Positions 4,397-59,900 of a DNA stretch of 64,000 nucleotides are shown one piece after another. The stretch's first letter is position 1, and every line of letters starts with the position of its first letter. The position numbers and the translations under genes were made by a program. Under the pieces are notes generated by a model. That model made no database searches. It saw only the letters and a list, made by a program, of their open reading frames with translations, and had not been told where the DNA came from. This DNA comes from Heterotrichella gracilis. Its lineage: Eukaryota > Sar > Xanthophyceae > Tribonematales > Xanthonemataceae. The DNA lies in the NCBI GenBank assembly GCA_032358255.1, contig JAULBX010008662.1, forward strand, positions 1 through 64,000, in the 5' to 3' direction.

Positions 4397-7300
4397 ATGG
4401 AAGGCTGCCTGAGGGCGTTTTGTACCCATACGCAGCACTTTGCTGTGCTTGGGTATCTGCCCGTCGTGACTGGCGTGCTGTCAAGCTCCAACCAGGTGAG
4501 TCATTGCCCATGGCTGCTACGGAACACTTGTTGGCTGTCTGCACACTCCTGACCAGCAACCCTCAATGTAACGCATCCCTTGATAACCTTTGGAACACTC
4601 GGCGCTGCTTCGCTGCCGATTTTGCTGCACTGGCGCGCAGGACTGCCCAGATCAATGCTGCCCCTTTGTTGCCGGCAACACTGGGCGCCCAGAACGCGGT
4701 TTCAAACGCTCCAGGTTTACCCTCCACGCCCACACACCCACTCATCACGTCTGCTACCCCCGCAGGATATGCTAATCAAGAAGCACCCTCTTCACGACAC
4801 CGTCATCGACATCGGAGACCTCGCCCAGGCCACCTGGTTTGGGCCGATGGGACGCGCCAGGGCCTCCATTCCAACCCCCGCCGAGCCGCCGACCTCCCTC
4901 GAGGCGGAGGCACCATCAGACGCCGTAGCAGTGGAGGAAAATCCAGAGCTGAAGAAGGGCGAGGGCTGTGTGACCATGGTTGCTGCCTGCCATTCCGAAT
5001 CCCTGCCCACAGTGGGTAGGGTGGTGCGTCTGGAGGCACGGTGCGACACGGCCACCCTTACCGCGTCCCCTCCCACGCCAGAGCGTTCAGCGGACGCCGT
5101 ACAAGGGGAAGCCAAGCAAGAAGTGGAGGAGAGTCGCGTGGTGGAGGCCTGCCCTCCCAAGCCAGTGGCCCCAGTGGTGGAGCCAGAGAGTGCCCCCGTG
5201 GTGGAGTCAGGCAGTGCCCCAGTGATTGAGCCAGTGGCTGCTGCCTGGTGTCCCACCACACCACCAAGGGGAGAGTGCCCTGCGCCCCAGCTGCGTGCAG
5301 GCGGGTGCTACAGCCCTGATGCAGCAGCACCAGAGAGCACCGCCTCCAATGAAGCATCAGAAACGAGGTAAGGTGTTTAGGGTTTTAGGGTCCTAGTTTT
5401 TTCACCTTTGTCCACCACTTCGAAGCACGTGGGGATTGGGGACTGGGGTTGCAGAATTTTGTTGTTTGCAGAATTGGGCAATGCCACTCTGACCAGTACC
5501 AACCCTATATTGAATACGGTGCTGGTCATAGGAGGCTAGACACATAACGCTGCAGTGTTGGTTACAAGTTGTTCAACACACTAACGCCTGCCCCTTGGTG
5601 CGCAGTGACGGGGAGTTTGCGACACTGGTGGAGGAGGGGCAGCTGGTGCAGGTGGAGGCTGTGGCATTGCTGGAGGTGGCGCAGGGCTGCGGCCCAGTCA
5701 GCGAGGAGATGAACTGCCAAGCTGACAACACAAGGTGAGTAAACCCTAAACCCTAAACAGCGTGGCGCATGTTGTAGACCACCCGAGCACCACTTCCTAA
5801 ATCTATGTAAATATTTCACCCAGCCCTAGATCTTAAAACACCTCGCCCCGGTCCACATAGGCCACCACATCCCCCCGCTTGGGTACCCTCCGACACTTGT
5901 GCTCTCAACACCGCCTACAGCGCCCCACTAGGAGCCACTCATCTCGCGGCCCTACACCCCAACCCCCTAAACCAAAGTCCTGAAGCCTCACACGTGCGCT
6001 CCCACTGCCTGCAGCGTCCCACACAGGAGCCACCCACCGCCCCTAGACCCTAAACCCTAATCTCCAACCCCTGAAACCTCACGCGTGTGCTCCCCGCAGC
6101 CTGCAGCGCACCACTCCAGGCGCTACCCACATGTCTCTAAACCCTAACCACTAACCCCAAACCCCGAGCCCTTCAGCCTCACACGTGCACTCCCACTGCC
6201 TGCAGTGCCGCACTCCAGAAGCTACCGCCCCGCCCCTAAACCCTAAACCCTATTCCCCAAACCCTAAGTTTCACACGTGCGTTCCCCAGTGCCTGCAGCG
6301 CCCCACGCCAGGCGCTACCCACCTGCCCCTAAACCCTAACCCCTACACCCGAAACCCCAAGCCCCCCCGCATGCGCCCCCCCGCATGCAGCGCCCCAATT
6401 CAGGAGCCACCCACCGTCCCTAAACCACAACCCTAAACACTAAACTCTAAACCCCCAGCCCTGGAGCCTCACCGTGCGCTCACCTTCTCCTGCAGCGCCC
6501 CAATCCAGGAGCAACCCACAGCCCCTCTGCGCATCTCCCAAGCAGACCTGGCGGTGCTAGCAGACAGGCGAAACCCCGCACACAGCGCCCTGGTCGCCAT
6601 GCGGGTGTGGGCCTCCGCCCCGCGCATCATCCGGCCCCACAGTAGGGCGCTGGCACAGCTCTACCAGGGTCTCCTGGAGCTGCCGCTGACCCTAGAAGGT
6701 TTTTGCCACCAGCCTGGCAGCGCACGAGGCCATGGTGGCGGGGGATGTGGGGGGCGTGGAGCACCACATCCTGCCCTGCAAGGCGGTGGTGGAGGCGAGG
6801 CATGGGGGTGTCGTGGAGGTGGTGATGGAGAGCACAGACATGAGCTTGGCGGGGTGGATACGGTGCGTGAGGCTTGCCCATGTGTGTGTGTGTGTGTGTG
6901 AGAGTGCTGCGCTGCGGGTGCACGCATTTGTGTGTGTGGCTGTGTGTGTGGCTGTGTGTCTGTCCATCGCATCACCGTGAATGCGGTTGTTGCATGCTGT
7001 CCACAGACAGCCCTGTCCACGTATACCACGTAGGGCATGTGGTGACACTATTTCCTCCCCTGCAGGTCCACCAAGTCCGCCCTGGCCAACACCCTGGGCT
7101 CAACCATCACCTGCACCGAGGAGGACGCAATCAAGTTCTATGAGCCATCGCCAGAGGTCATTGTCAACGTGACGCTGGCAGTCGCGCGCGCGCTGCAGCA
7201 CATGCACGCAAAGGGGGTGGTGCACGGCGACGTCAGCACACACAACATCATGCTGCGGGAGGCGCCAGAGGGGCGCTTCCAGGTACAGATCTGCTGGGCC

Positions 7301-9490: not shown

Positions 9491-12400
9491 TCATTGCACC
9501 CCCGGCGCCTCCTCCGCTGCCCGCCCCGTCACCTTGAGCAGGAAAGCAAACTCCAACGCCACCTGAACACATTTAAAAATTTTGATAATGTATCCATATA
9601 TTTGTTCATTTAGATTGTTTATTCGTTTGTTTGTTCACCTAAAATTTCAACAGTTTTTTTTATTTGAAAGCAGGTGTGTATGTAAATGCGGGACACTTGG
9701 AAAAATGCCAAGCGTACTGTTGCTGACATCGGGAATAACCCATACATTGCCAACTCCCTGCTTGCATTCTCTCCCCTGCCCCCATGCACCCACACCCACC
9801 CCTTTTTCCCCCTGCACACCCACCTCCCTCAGCTTGTCGAATCTGCCTGACTTGGAAAAGTGGCCCGCCCCCATGTCGCACTTGAACATCAACAGGTTGT
9901 CGTTGGTCCTGTGCTCGCGCAGCGCCGCCACCCACTTGGCTGGCTCCCAATACCCTACCCTAGGGTCGTGAAGTCCCGCGGTGACCAGGAGGTGGGGGTA
10001 GGGCTGGGGTGCCACGTTGTCCACGGGGGAGTAGGACTTCATGTAGTTGTAGAACTCGGGGTTCTGCATGCGGGGGGGTCATTTAAGACACTACAATAAT
10101 GGGCTGAGCAGTGGGGTGGCTTGGTGCATATGAGATCGCATTCAATAAATTTGTTGATTTCATATTTCCGGCAAGTGCGTTTTGCTGTAAAAATAGGCTG
10201 TAAAAGTAGGGTTCTAGCACAAGGTGCACCTGGCAGATTCAAAACCCTAAGGGTTCCAAATCACAACTAGAGTTTGATGATGGCAGCAGGGCGCTCGGAG
10301 ATGTGCCCTTCCTTAAGCTTCCCTCACTCCTCCCCATCTATGCCACCATGCCCATACCCCTCCCTATCCACGACACCATCCATGGGATACAATCACAATC
10401 ACTTCCAAGAGCTATTTTGTTGTTCCAGAACAAGATCAATATCACCCATGATGATGACCTACGTTAGGGTTCCCCCACTCCTCCCACTCCACCACAGTGA
10501 GCGGGATGCTTTCATCCAGCATGGTGGTCAAGCAATCCACAAAAGGCACCCCCGCGATGGCTGCACAGAACAGGTCAGGCCGCATGTTGACCGCCTGCAA
10601 GGGAGACAAAATATATCAGAATAAATATACAACAGGTTATTAAGTTAAGATATATACAATATAATGCATGAATAATGTAACATTATAAATACATATGATA
10701 TAAAACAATATAGGCAAGCCCCTCCTCGAACGGGCGTGCTGGAGAGAGGTATCAATATTGAAGCAGAGATAGCAAAGTGGAGGGCATTGCAGGTACCAAC
10801 TCCATGACCCCTAGATCCCCTGATCCCTGGATTCTGTGAGGGCTGGCCACTCACCACTCCCACCAGGATGCCCCCCGCTGACCTGCCCTCTATGCACAGC
10901 CCCTTGGGGCTTGTGTAGCTATTGTCAATGAGGTGCTGGGCACAGGCAATGAAGTCGGTGATGGTGTTGAGCTTGTGCAAGTATTTGCCATCCTCGTACC
11001 AGTTCCTGAAAGGGTGGGGGTGGTGGTTTAGGAAAGGGGGGCTGTGGGTGCAGGTACTTGCCGTCCTCGTACCAGTTCCTGAGGGGTGAGGGGTGTGAGG
11101 GAGGTTACAGTGCTGTCTGCCGTACCAGTTCCTGAGGGGTGGGGGGCGGGGTGGGGTGGGGTGATGCAGGTGAAGGTAACGGTGGGATCAATGATGCTGG
11201 TGAAGGTTAATGTGCTGTGGAGGAGATGGATGAACATATGTATGTCCTGGACATGCGTACAGCGTTTTGTGTGGCTCCAACAGTTCACTTCGCTGTATGG
11301 CATGAGTACATTGGTAAACAGGTGTTGCATGGGCTCCCCTTCATGGAGGCCCCCCATGTGACATATTAGAATATATGTTTTGTGACATAACTTTTGTCCC
11401 ACTGAAAACAAGTCTCCTTCTGATATACCCCACCTGCCCATCTCGCCCCCTCCCCGCACGTGCGCGATTGCGAAGATAACCCCTCGGTCAAGCAGCGACA
11501 CCCGTGCGCTTGAGAAGTAGGGGTCGTTGCAGATCTCATAGGCGCCATACCTGGGACAGGGCGTGGGGTTTAGGGTTCAGAATTTCTTAAGTAGGCCATT
11601 GGACTAAGTCTGCGTGTAGGCGAGGGACAGATAGACTGGTTGCACTACAGGAATAGCATGTACCACAGACACAACCATGATGGTGATATTGTGCTGCATT
11701 CCACAACGCTCTGCCCTCATCCGTCCAGCAGCAGCGGGTTCGAGCCATCTAACCTGACAGGATGGTGTGTCACACCACCACACCCATGCTACAAGGACCA
11801 CATAATGCACTTGATCACACACACTCCTCACCCGTCCAGCAGCAATGGATCCGAGCCATCCAGCTTGACAGTGTCCTTGCGGTACACCAGTGAGATGGGC
11901 ACCTTCTTGCCGTCAAGGCAGTGGCACGTGCAGTGACACATCATCAAGACAGTGCATGCATCCCACATAAATGGTGTGTCACACCCCCACACACATGATA
12001 TGAGGACCACATGTTTACCATCTCCTCACCCGTCCAGCAGCAGTGGATCTGAACCATCCAGCTTGACAGCGTCCTTGCGATACACCAGTGAGATTGGCAC
12101 CTTCTTGCCGTCAGGCGCGGTGGCCCACAGGCGCTCCGTGTAGTAGCGGCTCTGGTCAAAGCCCCCCAGCACGATTTGAACCTTCTTGACAGACCTGGGA
12201 GGAGGGTGAGGGGTGGGTGGTGCTGGCGATGGTGGTGATGAGTTGGTATGGCAGTAAGACTAATGTGGTGCCACTGGCAAAGTAGAAAGTCAAGTGGGGC
12301 GCCTGAAAATACAAGCCTGAGGCTGACTGACAAAGGTAGACTACTGTCAAAGGTCCGAGAGGATCTCAGGTCCCCGCTGTAGCTACCACACAAGGGGAAC

Positions 12401-19262: not shown

Positions 19263-21424
19263 TCACATCACCCCGCGCACCGTCAGCTGGTAGAAGATGT
19301 ACAGGTTCCACAGGCTGTGCAGCGTGATTGAGGACAGCAGGTTGCGCGATCGCACAAAGATTGTCCCCATGATGAGGCCCAGTAGTACCAGGGGCACAAA
19401 TCGCTGCAGGCTGAAGTGCGCGCAGGCAAAGATGATGGAGGAGGCCAGGATGGCGCCGCGCACCGAAAAGTATTTCGTCAGCGAGGGCAGCAGGAAACCC
19501 CGGAAGATCACCTGGGGACGGGAGGGGAGGCAGGGTGAGCGGTGCAACAGGCGTGGGCGGCGGTCGCATGGAAGGTTGCTTGCGAGAGGTCTAGATGTGT
19601 TCCATGTTGGGTCGATTGCACATGCGTTGGCACGCGCTGGCCCTCCAGCATCAATTTGTCTAGTGATGATCCACATGCATCTGGGTCAGACAGATACTGC
19701 ATGCACATTTGTGGGCCTCATGTTGTATCTCATCGCGATGCAAAAGCAACGTCGTGCATTGCTTGTCTTTGTAGCCTGCCATGCATCCCCCCCAATGATC
19801 AACCACCAACTGAATTGCTCCACATGCAATGAAATCCCCCAGTTTGCCTTCCTGGCAGCAAATCGTGCACAGGGCTTTGAATACCGCAACGAGCCTTCCT
19901 TCACTCCACCACCGCACCTTCTCACACATGAATGCACACATCGACACCACCAAACTGTACACCCTTTGGTCACTGGAGTACCCACAGACTGCGCCTGCTC
20001 CACATGCAACTCCACATGCAACTCCCCTAAATGCGCACCACAATGAACCCCCTACCCCATGCACTGCAGTCCATTCGCCTCTTCCGCCCCCTTACCTCCT
20101 CCCAGATCGGCGCGCACACCGACACCACCAGAAAATACACCGCGTTGGTCACCGGGTCCCCCGCAGACAGCGACTGCTCCAGCAGGTTGGCGCCCCACAG
20201 GTCGGCATCGATGGGGAACCACAGCTGGCTCTGGTTGGCGATCCAGTCCACCAGGGGGAAGGCCAGGCAGGCGCCCAGCACGGGCGGGACCCATTGCCTG
20301 CAGCCACATGGGCATGGTGGATCGAGGTTCGGGATGGGTTATAAATTGCATGGTCGAGGCCGCAGCAGAATTGTGCTGGTCCGCATGGGGCCATCTACTG
20401 CATCATTCCATGACATGAACAGCATGCAGTCATCCATGTTGTGCCAGCACGCTTTGACAACCCCACATCACTTGACCTATGCCCAATGCTTCCAAACAAG
20501 ATGCACGGCTGCAGTACGCACCGAATGGGCGTCCACCGCACTTGGAACCAGCCCAGCGCGCGTGGCTTGTACTCCTGGAGGCACCGCCACAGTATGGCCA
20601 GCGTCACCCCTAGCTCCGACACATCCAGCAACAGGTGCAGTATGGCTTGGCCCCTGCCCGACAGCTGGTCCCGCTCCAGCCCCATCATCTCCAGCCCCAC
20701 GGGTATGACCCAGTATCCCAGGATCCAAAACGCAAGCACCCACAGGATCATCACCTGTGCAAAGGAGGCGGCCTTGGGTGTTGAGTGGAACCACATGCTG
20801 GAGGCGACTTGGCCGGGTGGTGGAGCGGGGGATTGAGGATATGCATGCATACGGTGAGTGGTGCTAGGTGCGTACCTGCATGATCTTCTGGCCTCCCCAT
20901 GGCACGTTGAACCCTGTGCCCTGCACAAAACAGTGGATGGGGAGATAAGTCATGTGTGTGCGGCAAGGGTTGCATGGCCAATACTTTCTAACCAAGGCAA
21001 TCGCGGGATAGAAGCCCATGCTCAGTCCATGGAGGTTTGTATTGACAACACCAGGGTTAGTGTCACTGTGCTCCAGCTGTACCTTTGGCCTGTCTTCGTC
21101 ATCTATTGGGTTTGAACTGCTCTCTGTGAAGTGCTGTTCAGGGTTGTCTGCAGCATGTGAACAGCTGGGGTGCGAGTAGCGATGCCTTGCTCTATGCTGT
21201 ACTGTAAGGGACTGCCTGATGCGTGGTAGAAGTTTTAGAAGCTGGGGCTGTGGGTGGGTTACCGAGGGTGGGGTGGGTCGTGGCAGGCTGGCAGTTGGAC
21301 TGGCCTTGAGGCAGCCAATGCCACCCCGGTACACTGCCCGTGGAGCCCCACAAGAACTGCTCGTTGAGCATGAGGCTATTGAGAGGCTTTCAGGTCCTCT
21401 CGTATATGAGTTGACGGACGTCAT
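19263..21424 (-). CDS. CPBP-family (CAAX/Rce1-type) intramembrane protease, plastid-targeted
   Basis: CPBP proteins are multi-pass glutamic proteases or bacteriocin-processing-like enzymes. Exons from the 5' end are 21424-21083, 20920-20876, 20754-20522, 20297-20096 and 19511-19263 (TGA), about 356 residues. The first exon is Ser/Arg/Pro-rich with few acidic residues, as in a chloroplast transit peptide. Its donor (AAG|GTACAG at 21082) is the least certain junction. The three family motifs are present: EExxxR as WEEVIFRGF, split by the last intron; FxxxH as FACAH; and HxxxN as HSLWN. Hydrophobic helices include MILWVLAFWILGYWVIPVGL and VYFLVVSVCAPIW. The substrate is unknown; the membrane site is probably the plastid envelope or thylakoid. 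Confidence 0.88.
19905..19998 (-). repeat. Decayed copy of the CPBP exon end that carries the catalytic glutamates
   Basis: Within the last intron, the complement of about 19910-19995 encodes RVYSLVVSMCAFMCEKV. This is a worn copy of NAVYFLVVSVCAPIWEE plus its donor side (real copy at 20096-20170). The EE pair has become EK. Confidence 0.75.
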
Positions 21425-22090: not shown

Positions 22091-23943
22091 ATGTCGTGCG
22101 TGATTGAGGAGGTTGTTGAAGCGGAACCCATCGCCGCTCCTGAGCTGGATGCCCTGCTCCGCACCCACCAAGGCGATGCCAGCGGTGCGCTTGCAGCAAC
22201 CTTCGCGTACCTCAGCGCCAAAACCGACTTCTTCTCCACACCTGGCTCCGACCAGGTGGTGCGCAGCCTGTTGAAAGAGCACTACAAGCCCGTGACTGTG
22301 GAGAAGCCCAAGGTGGCAGCCGAACCAGCACCGCAAGTCCAGGTGGGGATCTGCAAGCAAGATCTCCAACAAGGCTTTTATGTCCCGGGTAGAAGGAAAT
22401 TGCACTAGATTGGGTGCATCCCCTGAGCAAGTAGCGCACCAGACCTGGTACAGGCAGACCGTGCCCACAGCTCGTCCATCTGCTATTGAGGCCCTGAAAC
22501 ACACTCCCCTTTGCGTCCACTGCAGAAGCCGCCAACTCCTGTGGTGTCACCCGCCCCTCCACCAGCACAGCAGCAGGCGGTTGCTGACAAGGCCCCTGAG
22601 CCAGAGGCAGCCCCTGCAGTGCCACCCACCCAGGCCCAGGAGGCAGTGCCCACTGCCGAGGATGGCCAAGGGGAGGAGGAGGAGGAGGAGGGGGAGAGCT
22701 CCAGCAAAGGGCTAGGTAGGCAACAACAATAAGGAACCTGGAGATTGCTAGGTGCATTTATCACAACCTACCCTGTTAGGGTACAACCTGCCACTGGATC
22801 GCAGAACACCGGCAACAGCATTGGGGGCGGCAATGCAGTGTGCATATTAGTGCTTTCTTGGTTATCAACCTTTGCTTATCAGCACTTGCGGGTTGCCAGC
22901 GGCTGTGCCTGGGGCTCACCTCCTTACACTTCCATATTTTCATTTACCTACAACCCCCCCCACGCGCGTGCAGTCCCCACCGCTGGCAACGGGGTGCGTA
23001 CTACCAGTCCTGGTCACAAACCCTTTCCATATGCACCGCCACTGCATTGCATACACTGTGATGTCCCAGGGAGCGCTTGCCAGTCAGGCTGGTTGCCATT
23101 CTTGCTTATACCACTTTTTAGTGGACAGCTGCTGTGCCAAGGATCCATCACTCCTTGCCTGCGGCTAACCAACCGCACCTCTGCCACACGCAGTCCCCAC
23201 CGCTGGCAACGGGGCCGTGTACGACCACTACTCCTGGTCCCAAACCCTCGCCGAGTGCACCGTCTCAGTCCCGGTCCCCGCCGGCACCCGCGGCAAGCAG
23301 TGCGACGTGCTCATCACAAAGTCGCGCCTGCGGGTGGGTCTCAAGGGCCAGCCCCCCATCATCGACGGCGCCCTGGATGACAGCGTGCAGCCCGACGAGT
23401 GCCTGTGGAGCGTGGTGGACAACCAGGTGATCGAGGTCACCTTGGCCAAGCAGGACCGCATGAAGTGGTGGAAGTGCGTGGTCCAGGGGGACCCGGAGAT
23501 CGACTGCCAAAAGGTGAGTTACCTACTTAGTTGCATGCATGCCAGCAATACAGCCAGATATCAGTCAGTCTTGCACATGCGGCGCCACGCAACTTACATG
23601 CATTGAGCAATCCAGCCAGATCATCAGTCAGTCTTGCACATGCGGCGCCACGCAGCTCTCTCCTGGCAAACACTACATCTAGTTTGCCCTATTAGGGGCG
23701 TTTCAGTTGAGCCTTCTCACCTTTGTACCACCTCTCATTCCCTGCCAACAGGTGGAGCCGGAAAACAGCAAGCTGGCTGACTTGGATGGCGAGACGCGCG
23801 CCACGGTTGAGAAGATGATGTACGACCAGCGGCAGAAGGCCATGGGCATGCCCACCAGCGAGGAGCAGAAGAAGCAGGAGATGCTCAAAAAGTTCATGAA
23901 GGCACACCCCGAGATGGACTTCTCCAACACGAAAGTGATGTGA
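22091..23943 (+). CDS. NUDC: NudC (nuclear distribution C), CS/p23-domain co-chaperone
   Basis: NudC is a cytosolic HSP90 co-chaperone linked to dynein/LIS1 function and nuclear movement. Exons 22091-22342, 22526-22715, 23194-23513 and 23752-23943 (TGA) give 317 residues. Residues 1-84 form a helical N-terminal region. About residues 85-147 are an Ala/Pro/Glu linker ending in a run of Glu. The CS domain spans about 157-245, with [36 protein letters not shown] and [20 protein letters not shown]. The tail [20 protein letters not shown] and [20 protein letters not shown] is the signature of full NudC rather than NudC-like proteins. The gene is complete and looks functional. Confidence 0.96.
22971..23030 (+). 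repeat. Decayed copy of the NudC CS-domain exon start
   Basis: A gcag acceptor followed by TCCCCACCGCTGGCAACGGG occurs at 22971-22993, then a worn version of the exon start. The same sequence opens the real exon at 23191-23213. The copy quickly loses frame. Confidence 0.85.
23536..23655 (+). repeat. Direct repeat, also dispersed elsewhere in the window
   Basis: The block CAGTCAGTCTTGCACATGCG plus GCGCCACGCA occurs twice in the last NudC intron, near 23565-23595 and 23625-23655. A related copy lies in an FBPase intron near 1835-1860. The preceding CCAGCAATACAGCCAGAT also recurs at about 33852-33870. It looks like an old dispersed element of unknown type. Confidence 0.6.
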
Positions 23944-25327: not shown

Positions 25328-28300
25328 ATGGCGTACTCCCAGCACCGCTACCCCGCCAGCAGCGTGCTGGTAGCCTTGAAGTACAACGACCCGCTCCCAC
25401 TGAGCCGGAGGGCCAAGCTGGCAATAGCGTTTGACAAGAGAAACTACGACGAGGTGAGGACGATGGTGTGGGGTTTGTGGTGTGTTCGAGATGCTCAGGG
25501 TGTTTCACTTGTATGGATGGTTTAAGCTGCAGGGGTTTAGGGGTTAGGCTGCGAGCCTGATTGCATATGTTTCTGCACAGCTATCGCTGCCCTGTTGCCG
25601 CCTGTCAGAATCATTTGCACCAACTGGGATACTTCTTGATGAAGTGGTCCTCACAACCCGGCGGTGTGATCGTTCACGCATGTGATCGGCGGTGCAAACA
25701 CCAGGTAACCTGGTGGGAGGCGCAGCTGGAGGGTGGGCCCAGTGATGCCTCTTGTGTTTAGGGTTTAGGGTCTAGGGTGTCGGGTTTCACATCCCAACCA
25801 CCTGCTCACACGCCTGCATTCTGCTCCGATCCAGGTCGATAAAATCCTTGGGCAGTACCCAGACCTCCTCACTGATGACTGGATGGGTGGCAACCGGTCA
25901 GGCAGCCTGGTGCACATGTTGGTCATGGCAGACCATGGCGAGGGGCTGCGCCATCTGCTGAAGCACAATGCGGATATGAGCTACACCTTGGGAGAAATAC
26001 CTGCCATCCCCATCTTCATGGCGGCACAGTTTGGGAGCATGAAGGCCCTGAGGGTGAGCGATACCCGAAACATTAGACCCTAAACCCTAAACCATATCTG
26101 CCATTCTCATCCTCATGGCGGCACAGTTTGGGAGCATAAAGGCCCTGAGGGTAGGCGATACCCTAAACTCTAAACCTCAAAACCCTAAACCCTGCCATTC
26201 TCATCCTCATGGCGGCACAGTTTGGGAGCATGAAGGCCCTGAGGGTAGGCGATACCCTAAACTCTAAACCTTAGGGTAGGCAACGTGCTTGTGCGGCAGC
26301 TGTTTGAAGGCTGCATCTATTGGGAGGGGTGGCACAACCCCTAGCCTTGGGCACTGTTATGCCACAAACGCTGGCGTAGGACATGGCTTTCTACTTTTCT
26401 CAGTTCTAATTTTAATTCTAATTATATTAGTAATTGCTGTGCAGGTTTTGGTTGAGGAGGCAGGTGTGGACATCAGCCAAGTCGTTGAGGCAGTAAACCC
26501 TTCTGCGGGGTGTGGAGACGCGTTCGACCACCGCGGCATGCGTGTGCAGATGAACGAGGACCAGCGATTCAAGTGGACCACCCTCTACCTGGCGGCATGC
26601 TGGAACCAGCCAGAGGCGGTGGAGTACATCCTGTCAAGGTGAGCCAAAGATGTTAAAACATGTGGCATGTAGGAAGGGTTTAGGGTACATCTTGGCAAGG
26701 TGAGCTAATGATTTTTAAGAATGAAGTGTGCATCCTGCCCCTTGGACAGGAGCGTTGCTCAGGAAGAATTTGCAGAGGTAATGTTCAACCCAAAATGTAT
26801 GTGTACAATGTACATATGTCATACTGCCTCCAGTATACCAAATGTCAAGCCAAGGGTAACATGATAATATTAGTCCTATTTACTACAATGTCACGGTATT
26901 CTTGGATCTAGTCCATATGTATATACATCAAATACGAGGTTTGGTGCCGGTGCTATTACGTTTTGCTATTGCTGGTGCAGGTGCAGCAAGAAGCTGCTTG
27001 ACATAAGCTCCCCGGGGGAAACTGCCGCAGATCCCAGCAGTCCCTTATAGTGGGTGCAGGCACTGTTGTATTTAATATGGCTTCGAAACTGGAATGCACA
27101 TCTTTTCCCCCCTCTTCTTTACCTACTTACTTCTGTAGTGCTGGGACCCTGCCCTTGTTAAGCTGGATGATGTTGTCTCGTGCAGGTGCAACAAGAAGAA
27201 GCTGCTGGACATGAGCTGCACAGGGGGCAACACACCACTCATTGTAGCTGTCCAGAAGGACTACTGGCAGTGTGCGAAGCTGCTGCTCAAGGTACTTGCA
27301 GCGCTCTGGGCAACCCTACACCCTAAACCTTGAACTGTAAACCCTAAACAGCGGTGCAGAAGGACTACTGGCAGTGTGCGAGGCTGCTGCTCAAGGTACA
27401 TGCAGTGCAGGGTTTGGGGTTGTATGGGCAGGGGTGTGGATGGATACGGATAGGTCTGGTCATTTTTGCTTTCTATGGCTATGAAAGAAAAAGCCCATCA
27501 TTTCCAAAGGCTAAGGTTCCTGCATTAAAAAACTATCTGCAATTAACCCTAATTAGGTTAGGGTTTTGGTTATACTGGTTCCCTGCTGTGCTCTGCAACT
27601 GCGTGCAGCCAACGGGCACTGCAGGCCCGCCATGCATAGTTGACTCCGTTCTTGTTGTGTCTGCTGGCGGCAGAGTGCTTGCGTCGCAAACGAACGGCAA
27701 CTGACCCAAACCAACTGGCGCCGGCTGGAGCAAACGCCAACCTTGCCAATAAGCCGCTGCGCAGTGAAGTGGCGGTAGGCACGCCCCTCATGATGGCGTG
27801 CCGGGTGAATGCGGTGGACAGCGCCAAGGCAAGTGTGCACTGCACTGTTTTTGACGTGCTTTCCACCCAGTGTTGCAGCGGGTGTTTTGGCAACTGCAGG
27901 ATTCAGGGTTTAGGGTTAAAGCGGGTTGTTTGGCGATTTTTGGGTTTAGGTGTAGGGACCCACACCCTTCCTGCTGCATGACTGTCCAGGGAATGCATGC
28001 CTAGCTGCATGCATTAAACCCATGCCCTCATATCCCCACATAGATGTACGCCATCCATGGGTATGCATGGAGCAAACCCATGCCCTCAACCCTCAACCTT
28101 AGGCCCTAAACCCTAAACAAAAAACCCTCCCTGCTCCTGAACGGCATGCATGGATCGAACCCAGGTCCTGCTGGAGCACGGCGCCAATGTGGAAGCCACC
28201 ATACCTGGCAGCTCCACGTCAGCGCTGCACGTTGCTGTCAGTCAGGGCCACAAGGAGGTTGCAGAGCTGCTGCTGGAGCATGGGGCAAACCCGGCAGGGT

Positions 28301-31300: not shown

Positions 31301-31709
31301 TTCCCATTTACCTGTGCTGTAATGCACGACACCAATGGTGTGCAAGTATGGCATGACTCAACTGTAGTGGCTAGCCGCCTGCATTGCTGTCTTGCTAGAA
31401 GTAAATCCCTAATCCTAAACCCTAAACCCTCCCTTGCAGGTGATCTGAGGCTGTGCGGCGGTTGCAAGGCTGTGGGGTTTGGCTCGCTGAAATAACCTAA
31501 AACCCCCATTGCAGGGGACATCAAGCTTTTCGACGCCTGCATGAGAGTGGTATATTGCTTGCTGAAGTAAACCCTAACCCCTAGCCCCTAACCCCTCCCT
31601 TGCAGGTGACCTCAAGCTGTGCAGCGGGTGCAAGGGCGTGGTGTACTGCTCCCAGGTGTGCCAGCGGTCGGACTGGAAGAGGCACAAGGTGGAGTGCAAC
31701 AAGGGGTAG
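25328..31709 (+). CDS. Ankyrin-repeat protein with C-terminal MYND zinc finger
   Basis: This is a protein-interaction scaffold; partners are unknown. Exons read are 25328-25453, 25835-26053, 26445-26638, 27186-27291, 27676-27828, 28165-28305, 28658-28882, 29225-29581, 30018-30152, 30395-30493, 31009-31228 and 31606-31709 (TAG), about 692 residues. ATG 25328 has an ACCATGG context. Ankyrin units are seen, for example [58 protein letters not shown] and [21 protein letters not shown] coiled-coil stretch ([20 protein letters not shown]) precedes the MYND finger, which reads [17 protein letters not shown] then [18 protein letters not shown], with all the usual Cys/His ligands. Two introns appear to use GC donors, after 27828 and after 29581. 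The acceptors at 27675 and 31008 are the least certain. Confidence 0.85.
26007..26262 (+). repeat. Three copies of an ankyrin exon end with donor site
   Basis: The true exon end (to 26053) encodes [14 protein letters not shown] followed by a gtgagc donor. Two further copies, with donor-like gtaggc, lie at about 26097-26160 and 26198-26262. They are separated by ACCCTAAACCCTAAACC-type runs. Confidence 0.9.
26687..27400 (+). repeat. Further exon-edge copies in the ankyrin gene
   Basis: At 26687-26712 there is a copy of the exon 3 end (GTACATC..CAAGGTGAGC) that follows GTTTAGGG. At 26981-27048 there is a worn copy of the exon 4 start, reading [13 protein letters not shown] and then hitting a stop. 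At 27353-27400 there is a copy of the exon 4 end ([13 protein letters not shown]). The true exon 4 is 27186-27291, so both of its edges have been copied. Confidence 0.8.
28556..28977 (+). repeat. Copies of both edges of ankyrin exon 7
   Basis: The exon 7 start ([12 protein letters not shown], at 28658) has an upstream copy at about 28556-28615 reading [12 protein letters not shown] before it decays. The exon 7 end (EIVKLLLK plus donor, to 28882) has a downstream copy at about 28946-28977. CCCTAG/CCCTAA-like runs sit next to the upstream copy. Confidence 0.85.
29776..30250 (+). repeat. Copies of both edges of ankyrin exon 9
   Basis: Acceptor plus exon start ([10 protein letters not shown], real at 30018) also occurs at 29778-29812 ([10 protein letters not shown]) and 29896-29940. 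The exon end DYLLSE (real donor after 30152) is copied at about 30219-30245, after a CCCTAAACC run; there the donor gt has become gc. Confidence 0.8.
30545..30592. repeat. Perfect 23-bp inverted repeat (hairpin)
   Basis: The arms 30545-30567 and 30570-30592 are exact reverse complements around a 2-base loop. They start with CAAGGGTAATAAGATAATAA. The hairpin lies in an intron of the ankyrin-MYND gene. A weaker relative (AAGGGTATTGTTATTACCCTT) is at about 63044-63064. Confidence 0.9.
31438..31605 (+). repeat. Two dead copies of the MYND half-finger exon start
   Basis: Before the true last exon (31606, [15 protein letters not shown]), acceptor plus exon-start copies occur at about 31440-31495 ([14 protein letters not shown], then stop) and 31514-31570 ([15 protein letters not shown], then stop). 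Both follow CCCTAAA-like or CCTAAAA-like sequence. Confidence 0.9.
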
Positions 31710-38100: not shown

Positions 38101-40461
38101 AGTCAGAGGGCTGGTGGCTGCATCTGCACAAGGCGTTTGTGAAGATAGCCGAAGATGTTGCTCAGCACCAGGTGGGTGGGGTTCATTTAGTAATGATGCA
38201 CAGTTGATTAAATCCTCTACTGTTTAGGGTTTACGTTTAGGGTGTAGGGTTGCCAGGTGTCCCATGCATTTGTTTGCTCTTGTAACAAAGTTTGATACCT
38301 CAGTGGGTGAACAGATAGATTTGTGCAGTTAGGGACTAGCTTGGTGGGATAGGGGATCAGATGAACCCCCAATGGAATATCATTGGGCAGTGTGGGGACC
38401 GGACAGTGTCACTGGGTCATGCGTTTGCTGCACAGTTGTGGCAGCTGAGTCCTCTGTGACTGTATAAAACCTCTGCACCCTGGAGTCTGAACCCTTACAA
38501 CATTCCACTCGTTCTCAAGAAAATTGCATCCCTTGGCAGGGTTTTGACCTCATATTCTACGGCGATTCGATCACCGAGTGCTGGAGGGGGACAGGCAGGG
38601 CACAGATGGGGATCGCTCGCTGCGCCGGCACTGCCGAAGTTTTCCAGCAGCATTGGGGATCAAAGTACCGCGCATCTGCGTTTGGGATCAGCGGTGCGGT
38701 TTAGGGTCTAGGGATTAGGGTGCATTTGGCATCAGCGGTGTGGTGCATTGTTCATGCCTGCGCAATGCTGGGGCTGCTGGTTCTTAGCTGGTGCGATTCA
38801 GGGATTTCCATCTCCAGACTGTTGCTAACTTTGCTGTGCCCTATGTGTGTGCAATATGGAAAGCTTGGGTTGCAAACCAGATTTTTGCCGTTAAACAGTT
38901 TTGCATTTAAATGATGCTGCCATTGGCGAAGGCTTCGACTTGACCAACCGAAATGGTTGCTTTTGGCTTGCACTTGTGCCCAGTAAATCCGCCTTTATCC
39001 GTTTCCTTTCTTCCTTCCTTCTTCCCACGAATTCAGGAATTTCCCATGTTGTGTTCGTGGATGTATTTCTAGCACCCTTGCAAACCACCTCCATGTCCTT
39101 GCAGCCCTTGCCGCTCAGTGTCAATGGGGTTACTTCCACACAGGTGACGAAACTGCCAACCTGCTGTATCGCCTACAACATGGCGAGATTCCTGAAAAGC
39201 CGCCTAAGGTGGTGGTGGTCATGATCGGCACCAATGACATTGGGCTGATAGGGGAGGCGCGATTGGCGGCCTTGGCTGCGGTGCCAGGTGGCATCACGGG
39301 AGCAGGGAATGCACCTGCAGCAGAGGCCAAGGTGTGGGAGGCCCTCAAGGGGATTGCAGAGAGGTGAGTGCTGAGCAAGAAACGATGGCATGCATCAGGC
39401 GGCTTGTTTCTGGTTGTCTGATATTGCGCCCCATTGTGTCGTGGATTCCAAAGATCGCATCTGCTGCTTACCTGTGGTAGGAATAGCATGGGAAGTGCTC
39501 ATCTTGTATGGATGGCATGTATCAGCTGCGGTTCTGCTGGAGCCTTGTTTGATGGTACTCCAAGTTCTGCCATGGATTCATTTAGCTTATCCACTAATAT
39601 CGCACATTTCAGGTGGATAGGCCAAACTTAGATTAGGTTATTGCCATTTTATGGTATCCATGCATGCAGTGTTATCAATATCTTTCACAAAAATTGCGTA
39701 CAACGACTCTGCATGACTGCAAAAACTTGCTGTAGCGTAGAAATTCATCAGTGTATCCCAGCCAGTGGCCCCTAACTGCGCCTCTGTGCGTCCCCTGCTT
39801 TCTCCAAATTCCTCCCCATCTGGTTCCATGTGATATTCCACTGCAGGACAGCGCAAATTACTGACGTGCTCCTGGACAGTAGTCCAAATGTGCACGTGAT
39901 CATCCTCGGCATACTGCCACGTGGGGAGATGTGTAACCCTGGGGCGTGTCCTGCCAGCTCATCCAAGTGGCCCAGACCATACACCATAGGCTTGGACGCT
40001 GTGAACGCATTGAATCGGTATGGGGCTGGGGCCAGTTGTTGGCGATGGAGATTATTTTGGCTCTTGGTTGTGCTGTAGCAGCTGGGCTTCCTGTTTCATG
40101 CCTCTTTTTATTCATTGACTTAAATAACGGTCATTCCTTGTCATGTAAAATAAATTCGAATCAGCTTTTATATGTATTTTCTACGGCACAACCCGCATGA
40201 TGGCCTGATTTAGACAGTTGCCAATGTCCCTCTACTAAGTCACAATCGTCACTTCAGCTACAATTGTCTCCACTGTGCAGGGACATGACCCAGCAACTCA
40301 GCAGAGCGCATTTCCTGGATTGCAACTTCCCGGAGTGGTTTGACCAAAATGGGAACATTGATAGGAAGCTCATGCCCGATGCACTCCATCCAAACAGCCT
40401 TGGCATGCAAAAGCTGGCAAACTGTATCGATGTGCTAATGCGCCAGCTCATGCCCGTATGA
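35110..40461 (+). CDS. Tandem two-domain SGNH hydrolase (PAF-acetylhydrolase-like)
   Basis: SGNH/GDSL enzymes are Ser esterases or lipases. Exons are 35110-35325, 35589-35742, 36104-36341, 36828-36998, 37303-37498, 37778-37949, 37993-38171, 38540-38693, 39144-39363, 39847-40017 and 40281-40461 (TGA), giving 683 residues. Exon 1 has a hydrophobic signal or anchor (WLVLLWVLTTWTLIG). Domain 1 has FYGDSITECWRG (Ser), LLIGTNDL (Asn) and DAVHPNSLG (Asp/His). Domain 2 has FYGDSITECWRG, MIGTNDI and DALHPNSLG. Between them lies a Thr-run/Pro-rich linker encoded by 37778-37949. Exon sizes match between the halves (154/154, 238/220, 171/171), with identical phases. If the 37498 donor is not used, domain 1 ends at a TGA at 37511-37513 and there would be two genes. 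Confidence 0.82.
36488..36545 (+). repeat. Copy of an SGNH domain-1 exon end in the next intron
   Basis: Sequence encoding GQQAVQMALEGIAYR with its donor (to 36341) is repeated at 36490-36545 as a worn copy (QQAVRMALDGVVYT, then gtgggcc). A shorter copy of the domain-2 exon end (GGCATCAGCGGTG) follows a TTTAGGG motif at 38721-38740. Confidence 0.8.
37804..37834 (+). repeat. (ACC)n trinucleotide run encoding a Thr tract
   Basis: About ten ACC units in frame give the poly-Thr part of the linker between the two SGNH domains. Such Thr/Pro linkers are common in secreted, O-glycosylated enzymes. Confidence 0.8.
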
Positions 40462-48900: not shown

Positions 48901-51900
48901 GGGGACCCACACCCAGGCAACCTGCTCAAGGTGGGTGGGTGGGGACTGGTGGTGTTGGGGTTGGGTGGGAGGTTGAGGAGCGGTGGTGGCAAGGGATGAG
49001 GGGGATAGTGGTGGGGTGGGGTGGGGGGAGGAGCGGTGGGGGTGCGGGAGGTGTCCCTCGGGCAGTGGGGTTCTTACACTGGGGACCCACCCAGGCAACC
49101 TGGGTGGCTGGGGATTTGGGGCTGGTGGGATGGGATAATGGTGGCATTGGAAGGGTGGAGAAGGGGCAGATTTTGGCATGCGCTTGGCAAGCCTAGGCAC
49201 TTCACCTGTCCCACAACCAACATATAGAGCAATTGCTCCACACAAGTCATTGCCAACCACTGGTGGGCTCAGCTGGCAATAATTCACTGGCTTGTCCCCC
49301 CTGACATCTCATGCCCCAAATGCCTTTGCAGGTGACTGAGGGTCCAAATGCCGGCAAGCTGGCCCTGCTGGATTTCGGCCTGGTGGCAGAAATCCCCGCC
49401 TCCGATCGCGAGGCCATGGTATCTGCCACCATCCACCTGGCCAACAGGGACTGGGATGCGCTGATCGATGACTTCATTGCGCTGGAATTCCTGCCTGGCT
49501 CGGCGGATCGGGGGCTGATCATTCCAGTCATGGACCGCGTGTTGGGGCCCTACCTGCGGGGAGGGGGCGCCAAATCATTCAACTTTCAGGTGAGACCCTA
49601 TGCTGTATGGGTTGTCGCATCAGGGTTTGCTGTGGATGCAGAAATTTGCCACCGCCCTGTCAATTGATTCGGTTTATCTGATGGGTTCCCCTCGCAATGT
49701 ATCCGACCGAGCTGCCTTGCAATCATCCCGCCATTCCTGTGTTCACCAAGCTGTGTGGTAATGTTCCTCTCTTGAATCGATTTGACTCTTCCACCTTGCT
49801 GTGCGGCCCTTGCCATCCCTCCCCTGTCACCAATGTGTGTCACACCCCCTGCAGGCTCTCTCCCAGGACCTCCTGATGACCACCCTTGAGATCCCCTTCA
49901 GCGTGCCCCCTTACATGTCGCTGCTGGCGCGCAGTGTGGCAACCCTAGAGGGTATCGCGCTGGTGGGGGACCCCAACTACCAGATGGTGGCACAGGTGTG
50001 ATGGAGACAGACAAACGTGCACAAGTTCTGCCAAACTTTGTAACTGCTGAAGATAATTGACCTCGGGCGCATGGAACTGTTGATGCTTTGCCTCTCAATC
50101 TAGCTTCAGGAGCCGATATGCATACTGCATGTAAACACCAGCACAAAATTGAAATGAAAATAATCAGCATTTTTCCAAGTCAATGGGATGTGATTTTTTC
50201 CCCACTGTCTCTGACCTCCCGATTCACCTCCCCTGCAGGCCTACCCCTTTGTTGTGCGCAAGATCCTGCGCAATGACTCCACCTCCACTGCAGCGCTGCT
50301 GCGCGACATGCTGTTCGACGGCCAGGGCAGGGTGAAACCCTCTAGGGTCCCTGCGCTCATCAACGCCGCCTTGGGGTATGTTTCGGACCGCACCGACGGC
50401 TTTGTGGACTTTGATGCAGTGCCTGAGGAGGGTGCAACTGTCAAGGTAGGGGTTGGGGTGGGTGCACCATAATACAATGCTGGGCATGGCCTAAATGGTA
50501 GGTAGGGCTACTTGTATGTACGGGTGCTTGCTGATCCGGAGATACATCTTAAAGGCATGCCTGCAGGTACACTTGGTACCCGCATTGCCTACCCTCCAAC
50601 ATTGCGACCCCCTTTTTGCAGGAAATCCTGGATTTCCTCCTGTCCCCAGAGGCCCGCGACCTACGCCCGCTGCTAGTGGCGGAAGTCACCTCCGGCTTGG
50701 ATCTATTCACGCGGGACCGCCTGCGCCGCGCCGCCGCATCGCTGCCCACCCTCACCCCCCGCCTGCCGTTCATCGGCGCCCTCCCTGCACCCCCGCCACC
50801 CCCGGTCCTGGTCCCTGGGATTGGGCTGATGGCGCTTGGGGATTTTGTGGACCGCGTGGCACCCCCGCTGAGCCAGCAGGAGGGCGTGTACTTGCAGACC
50901 CTTGTGGAGCTGGCGTCTGGCCTGCTAGGTAGGAGCAAGTTCAACGCGTGAATAGTATGAGCTATGAGGAAACAAAAATCACCACCTACATCATTAATAT
51001 TAATGTTCTACGTGTCCTTGTGTAATGGTTTGATTACGAGTCTACAGGGTGCTCCATTTGGGTTGCTGTGGAGCGCACCATGTCCAGCTGCTGTGGAGCG
51101 CACCATGTCTACACGTGTGTGATGCACGATGTGCCTGTCTGATAACTGTGATACTTTGTGTAGGGATTGACAAGGGCGAGCTTAAAAACCCTAGCCTCGG
51201 CAGCCTGATTGGACTCCTCACCAACCCTAGCCAGCAGCTGCGCCAGGTGCAGCAGGCAGTGCAGCAGGGCCTGACCAGCACAAGCAGGGGATCCTCGCAA
51301 GGTGAGCACAGCAAATACGCCATTTTAGCCTGGTTTGGGTCGTGGTGTATGGGTGCGCAGCATGGTGAGCGTTGGGTTGAGGAGCTGCGTGGTTAATGAT
51401 ATAAGCTAGTGCGCTGCCTGATTACTGTTGCCACTGGTTGGTGTTGAAGGTGAAATACCAACCTTCTGCCAATTGATGCATGCTGTGCCTGGACATACCG
51501 CAAGTAGGGCCCTCTACACAGACACCCGATTGGCAACCTGCTAGAATTTCTGTGAGACAGTAGCAAGCCCCTGATCCCCGCACAAACTCAGTTCCTAGGT
51601 GCATCATATCACAAACACAAAAGCTCCAACTTTGGCTCAAATCTCGTTTTCGTGTGTCCAGTTGCGCAACAGCTGGCAGTGGAGGTGGTTGAGCGGGTCA
51701 TGGAGCGCCAGGCGGAGCGGCTTTCAGTCCCCGTGGATACTCTCTTCCCTGGGGCTCGGTCCCTCCTACGCGCATCCATCAACGCGCCCCCCCCCGCCGC
51801 CACCCATGGCGTTCCAACAGTCAGGGGCGGCAACGGGGTGGGCACCAGTGGTTTGGGCGGTGCCAGGCACGGGGTAGTGACTGGAAGGAGCGGGAAACAG

Positions 51901-56900: not shown

Positions 56901-59900
56901 CGCACGGAAATAACGTTTGATGGACCATGCGCACGGGCTTGTTATGCGCTCACTGTGATGAAATTCAATTTGTTATCAATGCAAAATCCATCTTTATATC
57001 GCCAGCTGCTGGCCACAACCAAAATTGCAATGCAGTGACATAACGCTCAACTCACTCTTCTCTGTGTTTGCAGCTGCGGTGGCGCAGGCAGTGGAGGTGG
57101 TGCCATGTGCTGAGTCTGAACCCTACCCCAACTTTCCTTCACTTGACAACCTGGTGAGCAAGGCATTGGACAGCATCCAATGTCAGGATACCTGGGTCCC
57201 GAATGTCCTCAACACAGGTAAGTACAAAATCACACTTTCGCAGCTGTGGCATTTCATGCCCAATATAATTACAAAAAGGGACCATATTTATTATGCGGTA
57301 TGTAGAAATTAGTACGGCTTCCAAGGATGCCAAATACGGCACCTGATGTCATATACGGATGATTCTGCATTGTAACTATAATCTCCCTACGCCAGTGGCT
57401 GACCATGACTGGCGTCATTGTCAGGATGCACCATGCATCACGTGATGGGTCCCCAGCCTGTGCTTGACTTTCTTCCCCCCTCTATGTGCAGCAGTGGAGC
57501 AGGAAACGGAGGAGGCGGTTCTGGCAGCGCCTGTCTCCATGAGGGAAGCGCCATCATCCTCTATCCTCAGCCAGGCAAGGGATGCACCCAGCCCCACCCA
57601 CGCCAGGGAGTCCTTGGACCCCAAGGCATCATGCACATCACAGGAAGTGGGCTCGGGGTCTGTGGTGTCAGTGGCCAAGTCAATCAGCACAGTGCCCTCA
57701 ACCTCACGCAGCTCAACCAAGGTGTCTTCGGGCTCAGTTAGCTCAGTCATTTTGAGCTGGGATGTGCCAAGCCCATCACAGAAGGGCTCACCGCAGGAGG
57801 CAATGGGGAGCATGCCTCTGCCACTGGCAGAGAAGAAGGCGCAGGAGGTAGGGACACACCAGGGAATGACCAGCCTTGGGGGCTGGAGCTCTCATTAAGT
57901 CTCTTCCCCAACCAGCGCCCCCTCATAATTGTGCTAAATCCATGAAACGTGAAATTAAAAAATAACAAGAACATTGTATTTGGAATTTAGAAAAGATGCT
58001 TGTAAATAACAACTTTGGAATGAATACTATAATGTATTGTTGCAGCAGGTGAAGCCGCTGAGCCCCAACGTGGGGGCTCGCTGCAAGGTGAAGGCGGCAG
58101 GCATGGCCAAATGCAAGAGTGCGGGGCTTGTTTTCCCCTTGCGTCACAACACTTCACTGATGATCACAGAGGAAGAGCAGAAGTGCCTTGCACGCGGATA
58201 CAGCTCATCTGACCGCGTGCAGAAAGAGGTCCAGCGTCAGGTGGTGCTGAATGTGCTCAAGCGCATCCAAGGCCTGGCACCTCAGTCGGCCAGGTTCATT
58301 GTCGGTGCCCCGGGAGAGTTTGATGTCTTGAAGCGCCTGGGAGCTGGGGCATTTGGTCAGGTGGACCTGGTGCGGGGCGGGGGCTTTGAGGGCGAGGTGG
58401 CACTGAAGAGCTTCCGAGGGGGCAAGGCATGCGAGAATGCGGCCTACGAGGCGCTGATGAGCAGCCTGGTCAGCGGGTGCTCCTACGTGGTGGGGTGCAT
58501 GGGCGTGGTCCAGGTATGCCTGAAAGGTGGATGGAGTGGAATGGAGGTGTTGCTTTACATATTGACAACTACCCTCAGCCAGTGTAGTGTGGAAAACTAA
58601 TTAGTATGCGTGCAGATAGATTCACTCTGTGACTGTGTCCCTTAGGCTAAGGGCCTTAGCACTATCTTTATTTTCGTTGACCATCTTACATATGATCTCC
58701 TACCTTGTTTCATAACCAATATATAAAGGCATCTCTATGTTTGCCCATCTCTCTATTCATCCAAGTGTTTTTGGTGTTTCAGGACGACGCGGGGCAAGTG
58801 AGTCACACAGTGATGCAGCAGTATGAGGGGTCCCTGGACAAGAAGTTCAGGTGCGTGCATTTTCCTGCTGCTGGTTGCCTGACACATGAAACGCACATGT
58901 CTGGACCATTCACAGCGCACGTGCCTCCTGGCGTGGCCACTCCCACCATCCAGGTTCGTATGCAATGGTGACATATTTTTGTGTCATTGGTACCAGCTGC
59001 GTCGTTTCACACATGCACTGTCTACCTACCATGCAAAGTCTTGTCACTTTCAATTTTGCACAGCATATACTTGGACCCGCTCCCTTTGCACATGGCGCTT
59101 GATCACCCCTTCCCATTCTTTGCGCTCTGCATGATACATACAAAGTATCTGTCTCAAGATCTTCACCACGTGCTGACCCAATGCCTGCACCGCACATGCA
59201 CGCTCTTGCCCCTGCCTGAGCGGCAGTATACAATGGTGCAGGAGGGAGGTGGATGTCTGCATGGCTGCCTGTGACCCATGCTCCCTGGGACCAGCCTGCG
59301 GGACGGTGGCCGGAGTCATGCTGCGGTGCGCACACGACATCCTGGCGGGGCTGCGGGAGATGGTGGGGCTGGGGATGGCGCACGGGGACATCAAACCCCA
59401 GAACATCATGTGGGCCGCCTCCAACCCTAGCCCGGGGTCTACGGGGCCAAAGCAGTGGCATGTTCATTTGGGTGACCTGGGAGGCGCCTGCGTGAGGATC
59501 CCAGCTAACAAGGATCCCAACAGCAGGATGTTCAGCCCCCGCGCGTAAGTGTGAACCCTAAACCCTGCATAGTAAACCCTCAATCCCCTAAACATGAATC
59601 TTGTAAATGCCTAAACTGTGTGTATTTAAAAAGCAAACTGCCCATCACCTGGCCAGGTTCCATGGCCCCGCTACAGGTGTGTGGCGCATGTGGGTTAGGC
59701 TGTTTTATGTATTTTTGCATGTATAGGGCCTCCTGGTCCTCATGGTCTACAGCCCAGCTCCTTCAAAACCACGCGCCTCTGATTCTCCTTGCCATACACT
59801 GACCCCCTCCCTTGCCGCAGGTTCACCTCTGGCTATTGCGGCCCAGAGGCGGAGCAACACAGGAGCTTTGACGGCTGGGCCTCGGACATGCATGCGGTGG

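What the first reader, a model, noticed from the sequence alone, without database searches (positions are those of the whole stretch)
5740..58000. Introns repeatedly carry decayed copies of the neighbouring exon edge plus its splice site
In at least seven genes, both strands, introns contain one to six worn copies of the adjacent exon end or start, always including the GT or AG junction. Clear cases lie at 5921-6391, 11051-11140, 11718-11930, 19905-19998, 22971-23030, 26097-26262, 26981-27048, 28556-28615, 29778-29940, 31440-31570, 36488-36545, 38721-38740 and 49058-49115. Many sit beside CCCTAAA-like runs. The repetition across unrelated genes points to one ongoing process: local duplication centred on splice junctions, perhaps by repair of breaks in introns with telomere-like filler. 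It would lengthen introns and create decoy splice sites.
Basis: partly seen in the sequence, partly recalled or inferred. Interest (0 to 1): 0.8.

Follow-up and report, generated by a model that had tools for sequence, protein, structure and literature searches.

The report
Exon-edge copies beside telomere-like intron filler
In this green alga, introns often carry worn direct copies of the neighbouring exon's edge, frequently separated by short stretches of telomere-like sequence, which suggests that breaks at exon borders were patched in a way that makes introns grow.

Summary
All 13 cited intervals match their own flanking exon edge. In the window plus 23 sampled 10-kb stretches of the same genome, 35 of 357 introns carry a copy of the upstream exon end and 41 of 357 a copy of the downstream exon start (3.6 expected each). 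Exon-interior probes show no excess. The copies decay like non-coding DNA. Local pairs with coding sequence are direct in 97 cases, inverted in 0. Introns with copies more often hold CCCTAAA/TTTAGGG-type 7-mers (41 of 48 versus 86 of 238). These tracts also pile up within 40 nt of both intron ends in introns without a copy (29 and 22 of 231 versus 6.5 expected). A null of random duplication, selection and decay predicts 26-34% exon-edge pairs; 89 of 105 are seen. Best reading: duplicative repair of staggered breaks near exon-intron borders, often with telomere-like filler. Why breaks should favour borders, and whether telomerase is the source, is not shown. Rates rest on my own gene models, without RNA data.

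The parts
5909..6526 (+). array of about 6.5 worn copies (period 93) of intron 3' end + AG + start of exon 6496-6641, interleaved with CCCTAAA-like runs
   Evidence: TRF; self-alignment; neighbouring copies 70% alike
11048..11095 (-). decoy copy of the start (acceptor side) of exon 10855-11005 of the prolyl oligopeptidase gene
   Evidence: 88% identity; homologue residues about 611-620 map here as well
11121..11145 (-). second, shorter decoy of the same exon start
   Evidence: 92% over 26 columns
11824..11925 (-). decoy copy of the end (donor side) of exon 12029-12194
   Evidence: 91% over 103 columns; homologue residues about 545-574 map here and to the exon
11715..11760 (-). second decoy of the same donor edge
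   Evidence: 80%
19905..20002 (-). decoy of donor edge of exon 20096-20297 (Rce1-like protease gene)
   Evidence: 74%
22970..23038 (+). decoy of acceptor edge of exon 23194-23513 (CS-domain gene)
   Evidence: 81%
26094..26190 (+). decoy 1 of donor edge of exon 25835-26053 with telomere-like tract
   Evidence: 87%
26191..26273 (+). decoy 2 of the same donor edge
   Evidence: 88%
   Evidence: 82%
26972..27022 (+). decoy of acceptor edge of exon 27186-27291
   Evidence: 80%
   Evidence: 92%; 11 telomere-like 7-mer positions in the gap
28501..28599 (+). decoy of acceptor edge of exon 28658-28882
   Evidence: 86%
   Evidence: 80%
29779..29811 (+). decoy of acceptor edge of exon 30018-30152
   Evidence: 91%
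29876..29933 (+). second decoy of the same acceptor edge
   Evidence: 71%
   Evidence: 96%
31393..31478 (+). decoy of acceptor edge of exon 31606-31706 (MYND part)
   Evidence: 83%
31496..31559 (+). second decoy of the same acceptor edge
   Evidence: 73%
36495..36545 (+). decoy of donor edge of exon 36104-36341 (GDSL lipase gene)
   Evidence: 84%
38721..38744 (+). decoy of donor edge of exon 38540-38693, 20-nt TTAGGG-like filler between the copies
   Evidence: 88%
49065..49134 (+). decoy of donor edge of exon 48771-48930 (ABC1/UbiB-like gene)
   Evidence: 77%

Best explanation
These are scars of duplicative DNA repair near exon-intron borders. A staggered break (or two nicks on opposite strands), one side near the splice site and the other some 10-95 nt inside the exon, is filled in and rejoined, leaving a direct second copy of the exon edge and usually its splice site. 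Telomere-type repeats are often captured or synthesised at the join and end up between the copies. Splicing keeps using the outer site, so the inner copy becomes intron and decays neutrally; later slippage can expand it into arrays (5909-6526). Shown here: direct short-range copies, an excess at exon edges over a selection-and-decay null, decay of one copy as non-coding DNA, telomere-like tracts between donor-side copies and at intron ends, C-orientation preferred before acceptors. Inferred: the break, the fill-in, the source of the telomeric DNA, the use of the outer splice site, and the reason for the border preference.
For: Edge copies in 35 (donor) and 41 (acceptor) of 357 introns versus 3.6 expected; without the window, 19 and 31 of 273 beat every control. 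Edge pairs 89 of 105 (edge + non-coding) versus 26-34% in simulation; 62 versus 13 as non-overlapping clusters, 35 versus 9 without the window and L021. Local pairs with coding sequence: 97 direct, 0 inverted. Mismatches at codon positions 1/2/3: 10.9/12.4/18.8%, as expected if the decoy drifts and only the exon is constrained. Telomere 7-mer positions, copies separated by 15 nt or more: donor-side gaps 92 per 2124 nt versus 24 per 2396 nt of outer flank; acceptor-side 82 per 3968 versus 52 per 4199. Tracts within 40 nt of the 5' and 3' intron ends: 52 and 46 of 295 introns of 214 nt or more versus 16.0 expected for a mid-intron window; introns without copies 29 and 22 of 231 versus 6.5.
Against: No empty site, allele or relative was available, so insertion and repair are not observed. 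27 of 59 separated copies have no exact telomere 7-mer in the gap, and the outer flank holds one at 23 of 59. Copies can extend deep into the intron (up to 102 nt on the acceptor side, 106 on the donor side), so not all are anchored at the junction; 9 of 45 do not reach it. No mechanism of border targeting was tested. Copies cluster by gene (permutation p = 1.5e-4), and 12 genes with five or more counted introns have none, which the model does not explain. Gene models are my own and trained on the same sequence.
Confidence: 0.55

Rival explanations
1. Random local tandem duplications occur everywhere; those inside exons are lost by selection, and those at exon edges last longer because one copy is constrained. 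No junction targeting.
For: Intron-middle probes also show an excess (14 of 241, 2.4 expected), close in rate to the edge probes (24 and 30 of 286); random placement of the same pairs would let about 31 of 113 touch a junction (52 seen).
Against: A simulation with such selection and decay gives 26-34% exon-edge pairs, 89 of 105 seen; at 88% identity or more 21-24% versus 25 of 33. Telomere-like tracts are concentrated at intron ends even in introns without copies, where neither pair decay nor exon constraint acts.
Confidence: 0.12
2. Telomere-like motifs are selected splicing signals (G-runs after donors, CCCTAAA as pyrimidine tract or branch site before acceptors), and copies are incidental.
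For: Last 80 nt of introns: C-type in 45, G-type in 8 of 286 introns. Near donors G-type is the higher of the two in the sample without the window (97 versus 61 per 10 kb) and in introns without copies (84 versus 50).
Against: C-type tracts near donors are also far above controls (98 per 10 kb over 357 introns, highest of 19 control families 9.9; 49.5 versus 12.1 in introns without copies); selection on motifs does not make exon copies.
Confidence: 0.1
3. Copies are made by templated end-joining (polymerase theta) or by reverse transcription of pre-mRNA captured at breaks.
For: Filler and short copies are typical of alternative end joining (established knowledge, no call).
Against: Such copying should also give inverted copies; none of the 27 inverted local pairs involves coding sequence, and 100 of 118 direct pairs found out to 3 kb lie 50-300 nt apart, start to start (larger distances were not searched). 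C-type tracts, expected from synthesis along sense RNA, are not in excess in the first 80 nt of introns (31 C-type versus 38 G-type introns).
Confidence: 0.1
4. The introns themselves were born by tandem duplication of AGGT-containing exon (or by introner-like insertion), and the copies are birth marks.
For: Direct repeats around filler resemble intron gain by duplication (named as a mechanism in PMC3296678, passages seen).
Against: The expected cross pattern (intron start like downstream exon start, intron end like upstream exon end) is only slightly above chance: 5 and 6 of 357 versus 2.4, against 32 and 25 for in-order copies 60-160 nt into the intron. Introns with copies share no sequence beyond the telomere motif apart from one 19-nt hit.
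Confidence: 0.06
5. Assembly artefact from collapsed alleles or mis-joined reads.
For: My search of the assembly for allelic copies did not complete, so allelic contigs were not excluded; no reads were available.
Against: Pair identities of 66-98% with non-coding-type decay in one copy, an array of several copies, the exon-edge excess and homologue support do not fit read mis-joins.
Confidence: 0.04

Closest known systems
Short interstitial telomeric repeats inserted at double-strand breaks, proposed to involve telomerase (Nergadze et al. 2007, PMC2246262; outline and sections 7, 9 and 14 read)
   Same: short internal telomere-type tracts inserted during repair, sometimes with duplication of the flank
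   Different: there duplications are the minority (6 of 130 rodent, 4 of 25 primate loci in its Table 1); no splice-junction preference is mentioned in the sections read; here exon-edge copies are frequent and tracts pile up at intron ends
Tandem duplications from breaks with protruding ends or paired nicks (Schimmel et al. 2017, PMC5730883, abstract and section list seen; Schiml et al. 2016, only its title in a reference list seen)
   Same: direct short-range duplication, explained by repair of breaks with protruding ends
   Different: no link to exon edges or telomeric filler in what I saw
Intron gain by tandem genomic duplication or break repair (listed in PMC3296678, passages seen)
   Same: direct repeats and filler in introns
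   Different: most copies here contain a pre-existing splice site and lengthen an existing intron; the birth signature is only slightly above chance
Introner elements (recalled)
   Same: repeated insertion linked to intron boundaries
   Different: no shared element sequence beyond the telomere motif

Membership tests
Telomerase-type interstitial telomere insertion | internal telomere-repeat tracts beyond chance | tested here: met
   834 exact triple repeats genome-wide (428 forward, 406 reverse), 0 for the reversed pattern; over all 357 introns tract density exceeds all 19 same-composition control families in each zone and orientation
Telomerase-type interstitial telomere insertion | the motif is this alga's own telomere repeat | not tested
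   search for long arrays did not complete; TTTAGGG is called ancestral to green algae in PMC8226300 (passage)
Telomerase-type interstitial telomere insertion | break end in register with the inserted repeat | tested here: inconclusive
   only three abutting cases read by eye: two in register by 3 nt, one not
Telomerase-type interstitial telomere insertion | empty site in a relative | not testable with these tools
   the genome has no relatives in the collection
Staggered-break tandem duplication | copies direct and close together | tested here: met
   97 direct and 0 inverted local pairs with coding sequence; 93 of 118 direct pairs out to 3 kb lie 50-250 nt apart
Staggered-break tandem duplication | location set by the break, no expected preference for exon edges (my expectation, not taken from a paper) | tested here: not met
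   edge pairs 89 of 105 versus 26-34% predicted
AGGT tandem-duplication intron gain | intron start resembles downstream exon start and intron end resembles upstream exon end | tested here: not met
   5 and 6 of 357 versus 2.4 expected; a few single introns may still fit
Introner elements | common element sequence shared by many introns | tested here: not met
   1 short hit among 60 telomere-masked introns

The most novel reading that the evidence does not exclude
In this lineage exon-intron borders are preferred sites of DNA breakage, and the breaks are healed with telomeric repeats and fill-in duplication. Splicing hides the damage, so a border-targeted, telomere-assisted repair process is an engine of intron lengthening and of new decoy splice sites and pyrimidine tracts. 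The targeting could come from transcription or splicing intermediates such as R-loops that end at exon borders.
Probability: 0.4. Interest if true: 0.9.

Novelty: new variant of a known kind. Interest (0 to 1): 0.74.

Why it matters
How introns grow is a long-standing question; for the Chlamydomonas group, PMC8226300 (passage) says that the advantage of long introns is unknown and that whatever drives their length is likely ancient. A border-targeted repair process would link splicing, breakage and telomere DNA and would leave scars that can be compared between strains. It also warns that gene finders will call decoys as exons (mine did at 27360-27395, 11058-11078 and 29902-29934).

Tried and rejected
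Selection filter alone, intron birth, a shared mobile element, inverted or templated copying and a strand signal for reverse transcription were considered. C-type tracts are in clear excess only in the last 80 nt of introns (45 versus 8 introns); the first 80 nt give 31 C-type and 38 G-type, the middle 32 and 22, so reverse transcription along sense RNA got no support. A first gene-finder run over-split genes and was replaced; a second parameter set was used because four duplication-rich loci were under-annotated. A first extension script aligned copies to themselves and was discarded; the one used stopped too early in at least one intron (L021) and was repeated with looser settings. Rfam and tRNA scans gave nothing. 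Rows dropped before counts: locus L004 (GC 0.33); L001-L003 (pieces of the window); pairs with a 1-3-base period; genes with under 300 nt of coding sequence; introns under 80 nt. In one search introns with a flanking exon under 60 nt were left out; predicted exons under 60 nt were skipped and introns over 3000 nt or without GT/AG left out. Of the 16 pairs that one search counts as non-coding, about half look to me like edges of unmodelled exons or were junction pairs under the first models; I kept the count against my reading at 16. Literature searches were keyword searches of an open library; a report in other words or in a subscription journal would be missed.
Full report
What was examined. 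The window lies in a 68.5-Mb, 903-contig genome. Prolyl oligopeptidase homologues point to a trebouxiophyte-like green alga; among the 120 listed hits (of 2447) the top ones are 60-65% identical, to Chlorella, Coccomyxa, Micractinium, Apatococcus and others. I took 24 stretches of 10 kb from other contigs, at positions fixed beforehand, and dropped one with GC 0.33, leaving 294 kb with the window. Gene models come from a small hidden-Markov gene finder that I wrote and trained on these sequences (second parameter set). All eight predicted proteins given to Pfam matched families: seven of the 57 of at least 150 aa, and one. Homologue tblastn supports the prolyl oligopeptidase exons. No RNA data were available.

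The observation. Every one of the 13 intervals aligns with an adjacent exon edge, and four more copies lie in the window. Window self-comparison shows 25 direct pairs less than 2 kb apart. In prolyl oligopeptidase the stretches that homologues match in the exon are matched again in the intron. The sample shows the same: 12 of 24 stretches, window included, hold at least one exon-edge cluster, in genes such as glutamate dehydrogenase (L026) and a calcium-channel-like gene (L021).

Frequency. A 46-nt probe of each exon edge was scored against its own intron and compared with probes of other introns. First models: 24 and 30 of 286 introns at p <= 0.01, 2.9 expected each; exon-interior probes 3 of 169 and 1 of 182 (1.7 and 1.8 expected); intron-middle probes 14 of 241 (2.4 expected). 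Second models: 35 and 41 of 357, 3.6 expected each. In all 66 of 357 introns carry at least one (291 are without). A zone 800-1100 nt past the donor gave 0 of 357 (2.4 expected). Copies cluster by gene (p = 1.5e-4).

Not just survival bias. Of 113 direct pairs within 1 kb, 89 join coding and non-coding sequence, 8 are exon-exon, 16 non-coding; shuffled placement gives 60.8, 6.0 and 46.2. A simulation of random duplication, loss of exon-damaging events and decay, with decay settings chosen by me, predicts 26-28% edge pairs (34% with longer copies) against 89 of 105; at 88% identity or more 21-24% against 25 of 33. As non-overlapping clusters the count is 62 versus 13, and 35 versus 9 without the window and L021.

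Nature of the copies. Local pairs with coding sequence are direct in 97 cases and inverted in none; the 27 inverted pairs are non-coding, most of them palindromes, two of them telomere-like tracts. Mismatches fall at codon positions 1, 2 and 3 at 10.9, 12.4 and 18.8%: one copy drifts, the other is coding. Decoy GT is intact in 14 of 18 and AG in 17 of 18; 9 of 45 copies do not reach the junction. Junction-covering donor-side copies extend a median 46 nt into the exon and 13 nt into the intron (19 of 22 reach further into the exon); acceptor-side ones 39 and 21 nt (18 of 26).

Telomere-like tracts. The genome holds 834 exact CCCTAAA triple repeats, none of the reversed pattern. In introns with copies 41 of 48 hold a telomere-type 7-mer, in others 86 of 238 (Fisher p = 2e-10; without the window 27 of 34 versus 68 of 185, p = 7e-6); a logistic fit with intron length kept a positive weight for the tract. 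Between donor-side copies the density is about four times that of the outer flank, on the acceptor side 1.7 times. Tracts lie within 40 nt of the 5' and 3' ends in 52 and 46 of 295 introns of 214 nt or more versus 16.0 expected mid-intron, and in introns without copies 29 and 22 of 231 versus 6.5. Before acceptors the C-orientation dominates (45 versus 8 introns of 286), near donors it does not (31 versus 38). I read this as selection against G-runs in the pyrimidine tract, an inference.

Mechanism. Direct orientation, short spacing and filler between copies fit fill-in repair of staggered breaks, which can explain tandem duplications (PMC5730883, abstract). Telomere-like filler fits telomere-repeat insertion at breaks (PMC2246262, sections 7, 9, 14). 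In what I read, neither explains the preference for exon edges. Exon-border R-loops, loop cleavage during recombination with spliced copies or heterologous introns, or chromatin edges are guesses that I could not test.

Literature. Ten searches of the open library showed, in the titles and abstract starts listed, no report of exon-edge copies with telomeric filler in introns; most subscription papers are not held.

Limits. Self-trained gene models, a sample of about 0.4% of the genome, no empty sites, no reads, and unanswered searches for allelic contigs and for telomere arrays.

Noticed in passing
L004 (G000:C1:100001-110000): This stretch of the 894-kb contig C1 has GC 0.33 against 0.50-0.60 in the other stretches and no local pairs; possibly organellar or foreign. 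Dropped from all counts.
   Followed up: no
window 30545-30592; L013 7841-7889 and 8646-8714; L011 9771-9829: A palindrome of about 50-70 nt containing CAAGGGTAAT recurs, like a small hairpin or MITE family.
   Followed up: no
last 80 nt of introns, window and sample: Telomere-like tracts before acceptors are mostly in the CCCTAAA orientation (45 introns versus 8), as if reused as pyrimidine tract or branch site.
   Followed up: partly
L021 1-8973 (-): A calcium-channel-like gene with 24 local pairs in its 10-kb stretch, while 12 genes with five or more counted introns have no edge copy.
   Followed up: partly
window 33786-33917: A 97% direct pair of 39 nt with no coding content, one of the few young pairs counted as non-coding.
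   Followed up: no
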